Part shown: positions 18,855 through 28,646 of the stretch, piece after piece | Layout of the letters: each line of letters begins with the position of its first letter | How positions within the stretch are numbered: the stretch's first letter is position 1 | Source of the DNA: a virus | Strand: one strand, 5' to 3' | Virus record (IMG/VR): IMGVR_UViG_3300023179_000013 | Coordinates: 62,001 to 126,000 of that record | Length of the DNA: 64,000 bases | Made by a program: the position numbers and the translations under genes | Notes under the pieces: model-generated | What the model was told of the DNA's origin: nothing | What the model saw: the letters and a program-made list of their open reading frames with translations, nothing else | Databases searched by the model: none

Positions 18855-21626
18855 ATGCCAAATGAATTCGTTGCCAGGAATGGCATAATTGCGCTTAATA
18901 ATTCATCAATAACAGGTTCTTTAGGTGTATCCGGTGGTATCACTGGATCTCTACTTGGTACTGCCTCATGGGCATCAAATGCCGTTACATCATCTTATGT
19001 ACTAAATGCAGTAAGTGCTTCATTTGCTAGTACAGCATCATTTGTTAATCCGCTTTTACAAAATGTATTAATAGGAACAACAACAGATGCTGGTTATAAA
19101 TTAGATGTAAATGGTACAACTAGAATACAAGGAGCAATAACATTAAATAATGGACAAGGAAATGCTCTTATACAACAGGTTGGAACTCAGGTTTATTTTC
19201 CTAATGCAAATGGAATTGCCGGTTATGGATTTTCTTCTCCAAGTAATGGAGTACAAACGTTTAAAGATAACTATGTTTTAGGAACAGCATTAACATCATC
19301 TGCAGCAAATGATGGTGTTCAAACAGGATATAGTTTTGATACACTTTATTCCTTAATATCAGGAAATAAAATAGCTAAATTTACTACGACAGGTTCGTTA
19401 AAAGCATATATAGATTATGATGGAAGTATTTGGTCTAGTGGTTCTGGTACTTTTATAAAGGGATTATCAGTAACTGGATCTTTAAATGCTCCTTCAATAA
19501 CTGGTTCACTTCAAGGAACAGCTTCATGGGCAAACAATGTAATAAGTGCTTCATTTGCTACAACAGCATCAAATGCTTTAACAGCATCTTATATATTAAG
19601 TGCTGTATCTGCTTCATTTGCCTCTACAGCATCATCCGTTAATACATTAAACCAAGCTGTAGCAATATCTGGTTCCTTCACAATAGTAACAGGCAGCGGA
19701 GTAGAATTCCAAGTAACAAACACAGGAACTAAGATCGGTAACATAGCAACCGACACTCACACCATCACAGGCTCAATGTACCAATCAGGCTCTACAGTAG
19801 CCCTCTCACTCCGCGGCTCAGGCTCAGGTGTGTTTACAGTTGATGGAACATCAGGTCGTCTCTTCTCAGTAGACGATTCACTTTCAGGTTCACTCTTCAG
19901 TGTAAACACAGCAGCAGGTTTACCTATTATAGAAGCATTCTCTGATAATACTGTTCGTATTGGACAATACGGACAAAGAGTATTATATGTTTCCCAATCT
20001 AGAGTTGGTGTTGGTAAAGAAACAGGATTAAATGGTGTATTGGATGTTAGTGGAAGTGTTACTGTAACAGGTTCACTTAATGTAAGCGGTTCAATTACAG
20101 GTTCGCTTTTAGGAACAGCATCCTTAGCAACAACAGCATCAAATGCTTTAACAGCATCTTATGTGTTGAATGCCGTAAGTGCTTCATTTGCCTCAACTGC
20201 TAGCTTCTGGAGTGGCAGCGTAACAAACGCTACTAGTGCCTCATTTGCAACCACATCATCATACGCTAATAATTTTACAGTAGCAGGTACTATAACAGCA
20301 CAAACGCTTGTAGTACAAGAAATAACATCATCAAGAGACTTTGTAACTGGTTCTACACGCTTCGGAAGTTTATTATCAAACACTCATCAGTTTACTGGTA
20401 GTGTAAGTATGACTGGTAGTTTAACAACAAACGGAAATACTATAGTATCGGGTTCTTTAACAGTAGCAACATCATCTAATCAGGGAGGTGTTCAACTTTA
20501 TAGTAATTCATCAGTGGGAGGAGGAATTAGATTTTCTCATACAAACGGTAGTGTTATAGGTAGAATAGAATTAAATGCTGGTGGTGGAACAACTGGTTTA
20601 GATTTATATGCTTATGATTATTTTAATTTTAAAACACTTAATACAGCTATAAACTTCATAACAACAACCGCAACTAACTGGTACACATATAGTGGAAATA
20701 AATTTAACTTTGTAGGATATACAGGGTTTGGTGGTGAGGTTATAATGAAAAACAACCTAGATGGTACTGAAGTTTTTCATGCATATTTAGCTGATACATA
20801 TAAAGTAGCTTTCCCAACAGGAAGTGTTAGTATAGGTAAACCAGCAGCAACTACTCCAAATGCAACATTAGATGTTAGTGGATCAGTTACCATAACAGGC
20901 TCTCTCACAGTTATCACAGGCAGTGCAATTGAACTCCAAGTTACTAATACTGGTGTTAAAATCGGTAATGCTATTACAGATACTCACACAGTAACAGGTT
21001 CTATTAATATTAGTGGTAGTGTAACTGCAACTAACTTTACAGGTTCCTTATTCGGAACTGCAAGTTGGGCAACAACAGCAACAAGAGTTATAGGTGGTAC
21101 TAAAGATTATGTTGCTGTATGGGATACTGGTGGTGTGTTAACAACAGGATCCGTTTTTAATCCTAGTGCTACTGGTAATGTTGGTATAAACAACTTATCA
21201 CCATCATATAAAGTACATATTAGTGGTAGTACTGCTATATATGGGGGTGGATTAATAGTATCAGGTACCTTAGCAACATCAGGTAGTGGTTCTCAAGGTT
21301 TAGTAGCACCACTTAAATTTACTACACCTACATTAGGATCTAGTTATACTTTAGTGTATACAGACGAAGGAAAAATAGTTGAAATGAATAATAATGCGGA
21401 TGCTCCATTAACATTAACAATCCCATTAAACTCAAGCGTTGGTTTTCCTATTGGTACAGAAATTTCTATTATACAAATAGGTTCGGGTACAACTATAATT
21501 ACAGGAAGTGCTGGCGTAACAATAAATAGTTCAGGGGGATTAAAAACTCTTCAAAATCAATATGATGTTGCCTCTATTGTAAAACGTGGTACTGATAGCT
21601 GGTATTTATTTGGTAACTTAGGTTAA
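18855..21626 (+). CDS. Second repetitive tail fibre protein
   Basis: 923 aa. It shares the repeat vocabulary of the 2,621-aa fibre (TASYVLNAVSASFASTASF, TTTDAGYKLDVNGTTRI) and carries a fourth copy of the TAQT...NTHQFTGSV module at about residue 475. The C-terminal 90 residues (YTDEGKIVEMNN, GFPIGTEISIIQIGSG, SIVKRGTDSWYLFG) form a distal domain recurrent at the ends of phage fibres. Shared modules suggest the two fibres recombine or assemble as parts of one long appendage. Confidence 0.83.
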   Translation: MPNEFVARNGIIALNNSSITGSLGVSGGITGSLLGTASWASNAVTSSYVLNAVSASFASTASFVNPLLQNVLIGTTTDAGYKLDVNGTTRIQGAITLNNGQGNALIQQVGTQVYFPNANGIAGYGFSSPSNGVQTFKDNYVLGTALTSSAANDGVQTGYSFDTLYSLISGNKIAKFTTTGSLKAYIDYDGSIWSSGSGTFIKGLSVTGSLNAPSITGSLQGTASWANNVISASFATTASNALTASYILSAVSASFASTASSVNTLNQAVAISGSFTIVTGSGVEFQVTNTGTKIGNIATDTHTITGSMYQSGSTVALSLRGSGSGVFTVDGTSGRLFSVDDSLSGSLFSVNTAAGLPIIEAFSDNTVRIGQYGQRVLYVSQSRVGVGKETGLNGVLDVSGSVTVTGSLNVSGSITGSLLGTASLATTASNALTASYVLNAVSASFASTASFWSGSVTNATSASFATTSSYANNFTVAGTITAQTLVVQEITSSRDFVTGSTRFGSLLSNTHQFTGSVSMTGSLTTNGNTIVSGSLTVATSSNQGGVQLYSNSSVGGGIRFSHTNGSVIGRIELNAGGGTTGLDLYAYDYFNFKTLNTAINFITTTATNWYTYSGNKFNFVGYTGFGGEVIMKNNLDGTEVFHAYLADTYKVAFPTGSVSIGKPAATTPNATLDVSGSVTITGSLTVITGSAIELQVTNTGVKIGNAITDTHTVTGSINISGSVTATNFTGSLFGTASWATTATRVIGGTKDYVAVWDTGGVLTTGSVFNPSATGNVGINNLSPSYKVHISGSTAIYGGGLIVSGTLATSGSGSQGLVAPLKFTTPTLGSSYTLVYTDEGKIVEMNNNADAPLTLTIPLNSSVGFPIGTEISIIQIGSGTTIITGSAGVTINSSGGLKTLQNQYDVASIVKRGTDSWYLFGNLG

Positions 21627-24735: not shown

Positions 24736-25221
24736 ATGCCAGTATTAAATCCTAACGAAATCATGTTTACAGCGTTTGAACCTAAAGTTTCAAATCGCTT
24801 TATCATGTATATTGATGGTATTCCAGCTTATTTGATCAAGAAAGCCGCCGCTCCAGGTTTTGAAGCTGGTGAGATTATATTAGACCACATCAACGTTTAC
24901 CGTAAAGTTAAAGGTAAAGTTAAGTGGAACGATATGACTTTAGAATTATACGATCCTGTAACCCCAAGTGGTGCTCAATCTGTAATGGAATGGGCTCGTT
25001 TGGCCCATGAATCAGTAACCGGCCGCGATGGTTATTCTGATTTTTATAAAAAAGACATCACATTAGACATTTTAGGTCCTGTAGGTGATATCGTAGGTGA
25101 GTGGATTATCAAGGGTGCTTATGTTAAAACAGCTACCTTTGGTGAGTATGATTGGTCAAATGAAGCAGCTATCAGTTTATCTGTAACAGTTGCTATGGAT
25201 TATTGCGTATTGAACTTCTAA
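24736..25221 (+). CDS. 19: Tail tube protein (gp19-like)
   Basis: 161 aa, about the T4 gp19 length (163). It has the tube signature: FEPKVSNRFIMYIDGIPAYLIKKAAAPGFE at the start (T4-type tubes share the NRF...IPAFLIK pattern), a WNDMTLELYDPV strand and a C-terminal strand VTVAMDYCVLNF. Forms the rigid inner tube through which DNA passes. It follows the sheath gene and ends in a strong terminator, allowing separate high-level expression. Confidence 0.95.
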   Translation: MPVLNPNEIMFTAFEPKVSNRFIMYIDGIPAYLIKKAAAPGFEAGEIILDHINVYRKVKGKVKWNDMTLELYDPVTPSGAQSVMEWARLAHESVTGRDGYSDFYKKDITLDILGPVGDIVGEWIIKGAYVKTATFGEYDWSNEAAISLSVTVAMDYCVLNF

Positions 25222-25313: not shown

Positions 25314-26072
25314 ATGGCTGAATTAAAGTTACCAACAGAAAAAGTTTCATTACCTTCTAAAGGTTTACTGTATCCTAAAGAATCACCACTTTCAAAAGGT
25401 GAAATTGAAATGAAGTATATGACGGCTAAGGAAGAAGATATTCTTACCAATAGTAACTTTATTAAAAATGGTACAGTAGTTGATAAATTGCTACAGTCGT
25501 TGATTGTTACTCCTATTAATTACGATGAATTATTGATTGGTGATAAAAATGCAATTTTAGTTGCTGCTCGTATTTTAGGATATGGTGCTGAATATTCATT
25601 TAAATATAATAATGAACGTAGACAAGAAATAGAAGCAACAGTAGATTTATCTACATTAAAAGAAAAAGAATTAGACGCTTCTTTAATTAAAAACGGTGTA
25701 AATGAATTTAGTTTTAGTTTACCTAAATCTGGTAATGTTGTTACATTTAAATTATTGACACACGGTGATGAGAAAAAAATTGAAGCCGAAATTAAAGGTT
25801 TAACTAAAGTAAATCCAAATGGTTCATTTGACGTTACAACTCGTTTAAAACACATGGTTACTTCTGTTAATGGAGATCGTGATCAAAAATCAATTCGCGA
25901 CTTTATTGATAATTTTTTATTAGCTAGTGATGCTAGAGCATTACGTGAATATTATTCTAATGTCCAACCTGATATTGAATTAAAGTTCATTCCTGAAGAT
26001 GAAAACTATACAGGGGAGGGTATAGACATTCCTATTTCTTTAAACTTTTTTTGGCCTGACGCCAGAGTATAG
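25314..26072 (+). CDS. Baseplate / tail assembly protein, gp26-like (T4_baseplate family)
   Basis: 252 aa. Contains KVSLPSKGLLYPKESPLSKGEIEMKYMTAKEEDILT in short form (LPSKGLLYP, then EMKYMTAKEEDIL), the hallmark of the T4 gp26-type baseplate family, with FKLLTHGDEKKIE in the middle and FFWPDARV at the end. It sits between the tail tube and the tape measure, the position used by tail assembly chaperones in other phages. The gene ends just after a run of seven T; a second ORF in the +1 frame continues from there, so this product may be made both alone and as a 336-residue fusion. Confidence 0.75.
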   Translation: MAELKLPTEKVSLPSKGLLYPKESPLSKGEIEMKYMTAKEEDILTNSNFIKNGTVVDKLLQSLIVTPINYDELLIGDKNAILVAARILGYGAEYSFKYNNERRQEIEATVDLSTLKEKELDASLIKNGVNEFSFSLPKSGNVVTFKLLTHGDEKKIEAEIKGLTKVNPNGSFDVTTRLKHMVTSVNGDRDQKSIRDFIDNFLLASDARALREYYSNVQPDIELKFIPEDENYTGEGIDIPISLNFFWPDARV

Positions 26073-26325
26073 ACCTATACTATTCAAACAAATCCATGAA
26101 ATAGTATTTCATGGAAATGGTGGATATGATTGGGATACTGTATATAATATGCCATTATGGTTGCGCCGAACTACGTTTAATCTAATGAAAGAACATTATG
26201 ATAAACAAAATGAAGAGGCAGAAAAGCAACAAAACATGTTAAAAAACAAAACAGGTAGTAAAGATATAGCACGACCAAACATAGCTCCCAAACCAAACTA
26301 TATTGCAAAAGCGCCTAAAAAATAG
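26044..26325 (+). CDS. Frameshift-dependent C-terminal extension of gp26-like protein
   Basis: The frame is open from 26044 (a TAA precedes it) to the TAG at 26323. It has no ATG, GTG or TTG before codon 26149, yet the sequence upstream of that ATG looks like true protein (PEYRPILFKQIHEIVFHGNG, then YDWDTVYNMPLWLRR). It overlaps the end of the gp26-like gene by 29 nt in the +1 frame. The simplest reading is ribosomal slippage on the T7 run at 26046-26052, adding about 90 residues to 246 of the upstream product. The second half is Lys/Gln-rich and ends in IAKAPKK. An assembly indel in the homopolymer is the main alternative: six T would fuse both frames. Confidence 0.72.
   Translation, partial: TFFGLTPEYRPILFKQIHEIVFHGNGGYDWDTVYNMPLWLRRTTFNLMKEHYDKQNEEAEKQQNMLKNKTGSKDIARPNIAPKPNYIAKAPKK
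26046..26052 (+). other. Candidate frameshift slippery site (T7)
   Basis: The run of seven T is read TTT-TTT-TGG in the upstream frame. A tRNA-Phe on 26049-26051 can slip one base forward to 26050-26052 and still pair with TTT, giving the downstream frame (next codon GGC). A -2 slip gives the same frame. The upstream frame stops 18 nt later at 26070. Confidence 0.65.
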
Positions 26326-26360: not shown

Positions 26361-28646
26361 ATGCCATCACCTACACCAGAAGAAATACAAAGAGAACAGG
26401 AACGACTGGAACTCATACAAAAGCAAAATGCCGCTGCTAAAGAACTAGCTAGTACATACGAGAAAATGGCTAAGACTGCTGGGGGATTAAATAATGAAGA
26501 AAAAGAAATACTTGATATATCTAAAAAAATATCAAAAGCCGCTTCTGAAACTGAAAAAAGCACTAATAAACGTTTAGATAAAACTTCTAGTGTAAAAGAT
26601 CTAAATAAATCTATACAAGCATTACAATTTTCTCAACTTAAGAATGCTGATATTGCTAATAAATTAGAAAAAGCAAAAATAGATGCTATAAATGAATCTT
26701 TATCTGCTCGTGTAAGAGAAATAGATCTTAATAAAAAATTAGCAGCAGAATTAGATAAACAACAAGAAATTCAAGACCGAATTGAAGAAATAAAAAGAGC
26801 ACAAGGTCCGCTAGATAAAGCAGCATTAGCCCTCGCTAGAGAAGAAGAAAAAAGTAGTAAAGCAGTTTTAGATATCCATGAAAAGAATCTTAAAAAAACG
26901 ATTGAAACAAAAGATCAACAAAGAAATTTAGCTATACAATTAGACGATGCCGCTAAAGCCCATCAAACTATAATAAAGGAACAACAAGAAGAACTTGAAT
27001 TAACTAAAAAAGAAATAGCATTAAGACAACAGAAAAGTATACTTGATGCATTAGAAGAAAAATTTAATGTTAAGAAGATTAAAGACATGATGACTTTAGG
27101 AGGTTTATTTAAAGTCATGCTAGAATCTGCTCTTAAATTCAATGAAATATCAGTACAGATAAGTAAAAATTTAGGTTATGGTGCTAGTGAGGCAAATAGA
27201 GTAACGGATAATTTAGTAAGTGTAGCCCAAAATTCAAGCAACATAAATGTTACTTTAAAAAATGCCGGTGAGGCAATGAATGAATTGAATACTTCTACTG
27301 GATTAGTAGCAGAATATTCAGCAGATACTCTTGAAACCCAAATAATGTTAACTAAACAATTTGGGTTACAAGCAGATGAAGCAGCAGGAATATATAGACT
27401 TTCTGTTTTAAATAATAAATCTGCTTCTGACACTAACAAAGCAATGGTTGGTGCTTTTGTTGCTGCTAGAAATTCATTTAAAGTAGGAGCTAATTTTAAA
27501 CAAGTAATGGCTGAGGCAGCTAAAGTTTCTGGCCAATTAGCCGCAACTTTAGGATACAACCCAGAACGTATTACTAAAGCAGTAGTAGCAATGAAAGCAT
27601 TTGGTACTACGCTTGAACAAACTAAAGCACAGGGTGATGCACTCTTAAATTTTGAATCCTCAATTGAAAATGAACTTAAAGCTGAGTTGTTAACAGGAGA
27701 ACAAATGAACTTAGAAAGAGCTAGAGCAGCTGCTTTAGCTGGTGACCAAGTAGCATTAGCAGAAGAACTTGCTAATCAAGGAATGACACTTGAGAAATTC
27801 TCAAGTATGAATGTACTTGCCCAAAAAGCGTATGCAGAGGCTTTAGGTTTAAATGCAGATCAATTATCTGATCAATTACAAAAGCAAAAACAAGCTGAAG
27901 AAAGTGGAAAAACATTAGCACAAATAACAGAAGAAGAAGCATTAGAAGCACAAAAAAGACAAACAATACAAGAAAAATTTAATGGTGCTATTGAAAAATT
28001 ACAAGATTTCTTTGGTAATTTAGTAGCAGGTCCTCTTGGTAAGTTTTTAGACATATTAAGTACAGCTATGGGGTATATAACTTCAATAGGTGCTGGATTA
28101 GCTGTTTGGTATACTACTTCTAAATTAATAGCCGGTTCTCAAGCCTTGATTGCTTGGTATTCTCAACAAAAATTAATTGCTGATCGATTAGGAGTTGGAG
28201 TAGGTAATGTAGTAATTGCCCAATTAGGTAGAATGTTAGGTATATCAACAGCAAAAGCAGTTGCTGAAACTACAGCGGCAACCGCTTTATCTTTTGGTAC
28301 TTTACTTCCAATCATATTAGGAGCAGGTGCTGCTATATATGGTTTAATATCATCCTTTAAAGGAGATGACATAATGTCTGAGGGTGGCTATGGTAAACGC
28401 ACATTACTTGCACCAGAAGGAGCTATCAAATTAAATGATAAAGACACAGTAGTAGCAGGTACTAATTTAGGTGGAGGTGGTGGCGGTGAAGCTATTTCTC
28501 CTTCAATTGATTTAACACCAATGATCGCTGCTATTAATTCTGTTAAAGCCTCTATTGATAGGTTATATGAAAAAGACACATCAGTTAACATGGATGGTAA
28601 AAAAGTTGGTTCAACACTAACACAAGGTTCATATAAAGTAGCATAA
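26361..28646 (+). CDS. Tail tape measure protein
   Basis: 761 aa. Residues 1-235 are a long, highly charged coiled coil (Glu/Lys/Gln-rich). A central helical region has the TMP-like KQVMAEAAKVSGQLAATLG, then a hydrophobic stretch at about residues 565-670 (LSTAMGYITSIGAGLAVWY, then TLLPIILGAGAAIYGLI) that could insert in the host membrane. The Gly-rich C-terminus contains MSEGGYGKRTLLAPEG, a common ending in myovirus tape measure proteins. It sets tail length and follows the tube and chaperone genes. T4 gp29 is 590 aa, so this tail may be somewhat longer. Confidence 0.8.
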   Translation: MPSPTPEEIQREQERLELIQKQNAAAKELASTYEKMAKTAGGLNNEEKEILDISKKISKAASETEKSTNKRLDKTSSVKDLNKSIQALQFSQLKNADIANKLEKAKIDAINESLSARVREIDLNKKLAAELDKQQEIQDRIEEIKRAQGPLDKAALALAREEEKSSKAVLDIHEKNLKKTIETKDQQRNLAIQLDDAAKAHQTIIKEQQEELELTKKEIALRQQKSILDALEEKFNVKKIKDMMTLGGLFKVMLESALKFNEISVQISKNLGYGASEANRVTDNLVSVAQNSSNINVTLKNAGEAMNELNTSTGLVAEYSADTLETQIMLTKQFGLQADEAAGIYRLSVLNNKSASDTNKAMVGAFVAARNSFKVGANFKQVMAEAAKVSGQLAATLGYNPERITKAVVAMKAFGTTLEQTKAQGDALLNFESSIENELKAELLTGEQMNLERARAAALAGDQVALAEELANQGMTLEKFSSMNVLAQKAYAEALGLNADQLSDQLQKQKQAEESGKTLAQITEEEALEAQKRQTIQEKFNGAIEKLQDFFGNLVAGPLGKFLDILSTAMGYITSIGAGLAVWYTTSKLIAGSQALIAWYSQQKLIADRLGVGVGNVVIAQLGRMLGISTAKAVAETTAATALSFGTLLPIILGAGAAIYGLISSFKGDDIMSEGGYGKRTLLAPEGAIKLNDKDTVVAGTNLGGGGGGEAISPSIDLTPMIAAINSVKASIDRLYEKDTSVNMDGKKVGSTLTQGSYKVA

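What the first reader, a model, noticed from the sequence alone, without database searches (positions are those of the whole stretch)
25980..26325. Probable programmed frameshift joining a gp26-like protein to a start-codon-less ORF in the tail-chaperone position
Seen: the gp26-like ORF (25314-26072) ends 18 nt after a T7 run; a second ORF in the +1 frame is open from 26044 to 26325, has no ATG/GTG/TTG before 26149, yet its early part reads as ordinary protein. Slippage TTT to TTT by +1 (or -2) on 26046-26052 would yield a 336-residue fusion. Known: in many phages the gene pair between tail tube and tape measure (lambda G/GT type) is expressed by frameshift as tail assembly chaperones. T4 has separate genes 26 and 51 and no such shift that I know of. 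Inference: this T4-like lineage uses a frameshift here, which would link the gp26 family to the tail chaperones.
Basis: partly seen in the sequence, partly recalled or inferred. Interest (0 to 1): 0.85.

Follow-up and report, generated by a model that had tools for sequence, protein, structure and literature searches.

The report
+1 frameshift in T4-type tail chaperone
In a large family of environmental T4-like phages, ribosomes appear to be programmed to skip one base at a run of U's so that one gene yields a short and a long tail-assembly chaperone; T4 itself does the same job with two separate genes, and here a covarying RNA hairpin just upstream probably helps the skip.

Summary
ORF1 (25314-26072) and start-less ORF2 (26044-26325, +1 frame) meet at T7, 26046-26052. 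In 265 related loci with ORF1's stop visible, ORF2's best frame is +1 in 262; the other three carry ORF2 downstream with its own ATG. The start-free stretch of ORF2 is under protein selection in the +1 frame (pN/pS 0.18, against 1.7 and 1.2 in the other frames). Variants such as TTT CTA TGG and TTC TTT CGT exclude -2 shifting or homopolymer slippage as the general mechanism; every variant keeps a UUU followed by U or C, where tRNA-Phe can re-pair one base forward. The record has one copy of each part and no in-frame long copy. ORF1 belongs to the family of T4 gp26 and gp51, already identified as tail assembly chaperones; the +1 product is homologous end to end to -1 frameshift products of cyanophages and jumbo phages, and through them to gp51. 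New here: a 6-bp RNA hairpin with invariant loop WGGGGAGG, 20 nt upstream of the shift site, supported by compensatory changes; and opposite shift directions at the same Phe-Phe codons within one family. The hairpin's role is inferred. Nothing was tested at the bench.

The parts
25314..26072 (+). TAC-N: short tail assembly chaperone, 252 aa, T4 gp26/gp51 family
   Evidence: PF12322 E 1.1e-5 (25.7 bits, cut-off 24.5); phrog_150 baseplate hub 7e-12; AF2 model pLDDT 91.7, best BFVD matches are T4-type baseplate hub proteins such as SP-15
26046..26052 (+). slippery U7 (AAC UUU UUU UGG); +1 slip at one of the two UUU codons
   Evidence: TTT TTT TGG in 198 of 262 +1 loci; the other variants keep an in-frame UUU followed by U or C; only + strand T7 of the window
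26053..26059 (+). invariant GGCCTGA just 3' of the run (GGC CTG codons of frame +1)
   Evidence: GGC 63/63 and CTG 63/63 although CTG is 1.9% of Leu codons here; invariant columns in A1
26047..26325 (+). TAC-C: start-less extension domain, +1 frame, 92 aa
   Evidence: pN/pS 0.175 in the start-free part, against 1.74 and 1.25 in the other frames; homologous to TAC-C of -1 phages, hhalign 95%, E 4e-8
25314..26325 (+). TAC-NC: predicted 336-aa +1 fusion
   Evidence: translation with the +1 step; full-length profile match to -1 fusions, 99.5%, E 8.7e-23
26006..26025 (+). RNA hairpin CUAUAC-AGGGGAGG-GUAUAG, base 20 nt upstream of the run
   Evidence: 59 distinct sequences: 99.2% of cells paired, 3 pairs with double changes, covariation 0.305 against 0.202 shuffled (0/500); slid versions fail; MFE -5.0 kcal/mol, z -4
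26015..26019 (+). SD-like GGAGG inside the hairpin loop
   Evidence: SD-like 5-mers at -33..-27 exceed synonymous resampling in three clades; GGG GAG 63/63 although GGG is 3.1% of Gly codons
24736..25221 (+). tail tube protein (gp19-like), upstream neighbour
   Evidence: phrog_4542 E 2.8e-21
26361..28646 (+). putative tape measure protein, downstream neighbour
   Evidence: BLASTP 2e-26 to immuto protein annotated tail tape measure

Best explanation
The locus encodes a tail assembly chaperone in two forms. Most ribosomes stop at 26070 and make TAC-N (252 aa). A fraction, with tRNA-Phe on UUU in the P site, slip one base forward near the UGG codon, re-pair on UUU (or UUC in relatives) and continue into ORF2 to make TAC-NC (336 aa). 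By analogy with lambda G/GT, the N part would coat the tape measure protein (26361-28646) and the C part would recruit the tail tube protein (24736-25221). The hairpin with the GGAGG loop 20 nt upstream can refold at the mRNA exit while the slip codon is in the P site and probably stimulates the forward shift. Shown: register, conservation, coding selection, hairpin covariation, homology, gene order, single copy. Inferred: actual frameshifting, its rate, the hairpin's role, chaperone function.
For: Same +1 register in 262 of 265 loci. Coding selection before any start codon. Rare codons GGG and CTG invariant. One copy of each part in the 169-kb record and no in-frame long form. Full-length homology to -1 frameshift fusions. 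N domain in the family that holds T4 gp26 and gp51. Position between tail tube and tape measure. Covarying hairpin; a pattern for the hairpin that did not include the shift site found 79 of 79 sites with TTTTTTTGG or TTTCTTTGG at the fixed distance.
Against: No protein or reporter data. The direct profile match of ORF2 to T4 gp51 is weak (phrog_634 E 0.03; hhalign 2.5%); the link runs through the -1 phages. The PDB match of TAC-N to HK97 chaperone 2ob9 is not significant (E 1.3, prob 0.44). The SD-like element lies about 26 nt upstream, not 3 nt as in prfB. L262 and L267 appear to express ORF2 from its own ATG.
Confidence: 0.88

Rival explanations
1. -2 ribosomal slippage on U7 reaches the same frame and adds one Phe (337 aa).
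For: Possible by re-pairing UUU on UUU in the T7 loci themselves.
Against: Relatives in the same register have TTT CTA TGG, TTC TTT CGT, TTT CTA TTC or CTG TTT CGC, where a -2 move gives poor pairing but a +1 move of tRNA-Phe from UUU to UUC or UUU is perfect.
Confidence: 0.05
2. Transcriptional slippage on T7 yields a mixed mRNA pool, some molecules with one U fewer.
For: T7 in an AT-rich gene; known for T runs elsewhere (own knowledge).
Against: About a quarter of the loci have other sites, many with longest T runs of only 3 or 4 (TTTCTTTGG, TTTCTATGG, TTCTTTTGG), yet the same register; nucleotides around the run are conserved as well.
Confidence: 0.04
3. ORF2 is a separate gene translated from ATG 26149 or by re-initiation, without frameshift.
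For: L262 and L267, and perhaps L088, have ORF2 with an ATG 2-8 nt after the ORF1 stop.
Against: 26074-26148 evolves as coding sequence in frame +1 (pN/pS 0.175) with no stop in 63 sequences and no usable start in the window; conserved FFGLTPEYR lies upstream of ATG 26149.
Confidence: 0.03
4. The hairpin is real but serves something else (RNA processing, a translational operator, or an anti-SD contact with no effect on frame). This rivals only the hairpin's role, not the frameshift.
For: GGAG in a loop resembles sites of T4 RegB or translational repressors (own knowledge). Clades B and C keep an SD-like run at this place but show no conserved stem.
Against: Coupling to the shift site at fixed spacing in 79 of 79. 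A RegB search of the record found nothing, but its control also found nothing, so it is not informative.
Confidence: 0.4

Closest known systems
Lambda gpG/gpGT and other tail assembly chaperone pairs
   Same: Gene position between tail tube and tape measure; [quoted passage not shown]
   Different: Lambda shifts -1; here +1 on UUU-Y, with a hairpin upstream; sequence similarity to lambda G was not tested
T4 gp26 and gp51 (Straboviridae; Vladimirov et al. 2022)
   Same: Same N-terminal family (PF12322); gp51 corresponds to the long form
   Different: T4 encodes short and long forms as two divergently transcribed genes; here one locus and a frameshift
-1 frameshift homologues in cyanophages (P-SSM2, S-CAM9, S-SKS1) and jumbo phages (121Q, Munch, PA5oct and others)
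   Same: Full-length homologue (hhalign 99.5%), shift at the same Phe-Phe codons
   Different: Opposite direction: -1 on T TTT TTY
E. coli prfB +1 frameshift
   Same: Forward slip with a purine-rich SD-like element upstream; the immuto-clade site TTT CTT TGG contains CUU-U
   Different: No stop codon in the A site; SD-like element about 26 nt away, in a hairpin loop, instead of 3 nt
+1 frameshifts in other phages: Listeria PSA/A118/A500 tail gene (CCC UGA), HSTV-2 tail chaperone (PMC5009743)
   Same: +1 shifts in phage structural or chaperone genes
   Different: Different genes or sites; a proline slip in Listeria phages
T4 gene 60 bypassing
   Same: Forward movement; a 5' stem-loop re-forming behind the ribosome has been proposed there (own knowledge)
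   Different: 50-nt bypass, not a one-base shift

Membership tests
Phage tail assembly chaperone (TAC-N/TAC-NC) | Located between tail tube and tape measure genes | tested here: met
   tube 24736-25221, TAC, tape measure 26361-28646
[quoted passage not shown]
   262 of 265 loci
Phage tail assembly chaperone (TAC-N/TAC-NC) | Chaperone fold (HK97 gp13 type) | tested here: inconclusive
   2ob9 has the highest probability of the PDB list shown (0.44) but E 1.3
Phage tail assembly chaperone (TAC-N/TAC-NC) | Binds tape measure and tube proteins; absent from the mature virion | not testable with these tools
   needs biochemistry
T4 gp26/gp51 family | PF12322 over its cut-off | tested here: met
   25.7 bits against 24.5; T4 gp26 and gp51 both match. 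The longer fusion P0003 scores 23.9, just below the cut-off
T4 gp26/gp51 family | Separate in-frame long gene (T4 arrangement) | tested here: not met
   one N-part and one C-part locus in the record; the record may be incomplete
Programmed +1 ribosomal frameshift | P-site tRNA can re-pair one base 3' | tested here: met
   UUU followed by U or C in every +1 variant
Programmed +1 ribosomal frameshift | Slow A-site codon | not testable with these tools
   UGG in most loci; decoding rate not known
Programmed +1 ribosomal frameshift | SD 3 nt upstream as in prfB | tested here: not met
   SD-like run at -33..-27
Programmed +1 ribosomal frameshift | Fusion protein observed | not testable with these tools
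   no proteomics
-1 frameshift on X XXY YYZ | Downstream ORF in the -1 frame | tested here: not met
   ORF2 is +1; the -1 frame meets TGA (26057-26059) within a few codons in the window

The most novel reading that the evidence does not exclude
A covarying hairpin that shows an SD-like GGAGG in its loop and folds just outside the ribosome's mRNA exit is a new kind of 5' stimulator of +1 frameshifting; and one orthologous gene has changed the direction of its programmed frameshift (+1 versus -1) at the same two Phe codons, with the T4 gene pair 26/51 as the duplicated form that did away with it.
Probability: 0.45. Interest if true: 0.8.

Novelty: new variant of a known kind. Interest (0 to 1): 0.62.

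Why it matters
A 2016 review (PMC5009743) names T4 as the exception to tail-chaperone frameshifting. These data indicate that T4's own protein family uses frameshifting in many phages, in both directions, and suggest that T4's two genes replaced a frameshift. It gives a compact, testable +1 site with a covarying upstream hairpin, a class of stimulator with few examples, and would correct annotation of a C-terminal domain listed only as hypothetical proteins in the GenBank records of +1 phages looked at.

Tried and rejected
Downstream hairpin CCATGAAAT-AGT-ATTTCATGG (26094-26114): strong in the window but fully paired in only 33 of 53 relatives, and no consensus fold downstream. Long-range pairing of the upstream arm with the stop-codon region, the RNAalifold optimum: not above shuffles (114/500). 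Conserved structure in clades B and C: none found. Direct profile match to T4 gp26/gp51 single sequences: nothing. RegB search: uninformative, its control found nothing. Rfam: no relevant family. NCBIfam: nothing. tRNA genes: none in the window. Foldseek of TAC-C: weak only. The 2022 Virology paper is not held.

Full report
What is there. ORF1 (25314-26072, 252 aa) reads ...TTA AAC TTT TTT TGG CCT GAC GCC AGA GTA TAG; T7 is 26046-26052. ORF2 is open in the +1 frame from 26044 to 26325 and has no ATG/GTG/TTG before 26149. The window lies in an IMG/VR virus record of 168,946 bases. T7 is avoided: 18 on both strands against 71 in shuffles, and this is the only one on the + strand, where nearly all long ORFs lie.

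Identity. ORF1 passes the Pfam T4_baseplate cut-off (PF12322, 25.7 bits) and hits phrog_150. T4 gp26 and gp51 both belong to PF12322, and gp51 has an extra C-terminal part shared with phrog_634. ORF2 alone touches phrog_634 only weakly (E 0.03). Upstream is the tail tube gene; downstream is a protein similar to the annotated tape measure of Flavobacterium phage immuto, so this is the tail assembly chaperone position. AlphaFold gives a confident ORF1 model (pLDDT 91.7) whose viral neighbours are T4-type baseplate hub proteins; HK97 chaperone 2ob9 is the likeliest PDB match but not significant.

Frameshift. Five scans plus named phages gave 265 loci with the ORF1 stop visible. ORF2's best frame is +1 in 262. 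Shift sites: TTT TTT TGG 198, TTT CTT TGG 35, TTC TTT TGG 14, TTT CTA TGG 4, CTT TTT TGG 3, TTT TTT TAC 2, and single cases TTT CTA TTC, TTC TTT CGT, TTT TTT AGT, TTT CTT TAC, TTT TTT CAC, TTT TTT CGT; Streptomyces phage BRock has CTG TTT CGC. Rhodothermus phage RM378, counted among the loci, has TCC TTT TTT TGG. Each holds a UUU codon followed by U or C, on which tRNA-Phe can re-pair one base forward; neither a -2 shift nor homopolymer slippage fits all of them. The frame-0 stop follows within 5-8 codons of the site. In 63 thinned relatives, 26074-26148, which no start codon precedes in the window, has pN/pS 0.175 in frame +1 against 1.74 and 1.25 in the other frames. The record has one copy of each part, so no in-frame long gene was seen; the record may be incomplete.

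Nucleotide signals. Besides the run, GGC CTG just after it and GGG GAG at -33..-28 are invariant in 63/63 although GGG is 3.1% of Gly codons and CTG 1.9% of Leu codons in the window. The lowest synonymous diversity of ORF1 lies at -39..-21. There the RNA forms CUAUAC-AGGGGAGG-GUAUAG (26006-26025). The window and 80 close loci all pair at the five core positions. In 59 distinct sequences 99.2% of cells pair, three pairs show double changes (UA/CG, UA/CG, AU/GC), the covariation score is 0.305 against 0.202 in shuffles (0/500), and sliding destroys it. Related sequences can beat such shuffles without any structure, but separate double changes at three pairs and the slides argue for a real helix. 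A scan for the hairpin that did not name the shift site gave 79 sites, all with TTTTTTTGG or TTTCTTTGG at the same distance; these are all the same gene, so this shows coupling, not independent origin. SD-like purine runs at this place exceed synonymous resampling in clades A, B and C (60/60 against 37; 44/60 against 27; 37/47 against 23), though B and C show no conserved stem.

Relatives and evolution. In cyanophages P-SSM2, S-CAM9, S-SKS1 and in jumbo phages 121Q, Munch, RAS14, Atu_ph07, XaC1, BF, Vibrio 2.275 and PA5oct, the equivalent extension lies in the -1 frame at T TTT TTY. The joined +1 profile matches the joined -1 profile nearly end to end (99.5%, E 8.7e-23), TAC-C alone matches TAC-C (95%, E 4e-8), and the -1 fusions match Straboviridae gp51 (97.2%, E 3.5e-11). 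These hhalign values are for single comparisons. In a tree of 63 N-domains, gp26 and gp51 of Straboviridae are each one group, together next to the cyanophages; -1 phages fall in two places, and the two own-start loci L262 and L267 nest inside the +1 group. The root is unknown and long branches make the deep order uncertain, so I claim at least two changes of mode, not a polarity.

Mechanism. Most likely tRNA-Phe in the P site slips forward on UUU while the next codon, usually UGG, is awaited. With the slip codon in the P site the hairpin base is about 20 nt upstream, just outside the ribosome (own knowledge of the footprint), where refolding or a contact of its GGAGG loop with 16S rRNA could favour forward movement. 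This last step is inference. No single one of the two adjacent codons explains all sites: TTT CTA TGG needs the first, TTC TTT TGG the second.

Prior knowledge. Tail-chaperone frameshifting is classical; the 2016 review says it is conserved except in T4 and notes a probable +1 case in HSTV-2 and +1 shifts in Listeria phages (PMC5009743). Vladimirov et al. 2022 identified the T4 chaperones; citing papers say that some T4-like phages carry separate short and long genes (PMC10885494) and that poly-T -1 signals occur in T4-like TAC-N genes (PMC12846349). I could not read the original. The gp26-chaperone link is therefore known; the +1 mode in this family, its hairpin and the direction change I did not find described, within a limited open-access search.

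Noticed in passing
L083 4339-4449; L084 4237-4473; L279 2321-2440; L274 2246-2428: GenBank records of immuto, Mel-JY01, SP-15 and BRock annotate the extension as short hypothetical proteins with arbitrary starts and no frameshift.
   Followed up: yes
L262 3232-3549; L267 3223-3510: Two loci nested in the +1 clade have ORF2 with its own ATG 5-8 nt after the ORF1 stop: an apparent loss of the frameshift.
   Followed up: partly
L283-L286, L275-L278, L280-L282: The same gene in cyanophages and jumbo phages uses a -1 site T TTT TTY at the same Phe-Phe codons.
   Followed up: partly
L088 4269-4423: 595-kb megaphage record LR756511: ORF2 could be a -1 extension or start at an ATG 2 nt after the ORF1 stop; not resolved.
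   Followed up: no
window 1-64000, + strand: T7 runs are strongly avoided on the coding strand (1 against 17 A7); the frameshift site is the only one.
   Followed up: partly
26094-26114: Strong local hairpin CCATGAAAT-AGT-ATTTCATGG in ORF2, not supported across relatives.
   Followed up: yes
18855-21626: 923-aa protein with many GSLxGTASWA / SASFASTASF type repeats, probably a tail fibre or adhesin-like protein.
   Followed up: no
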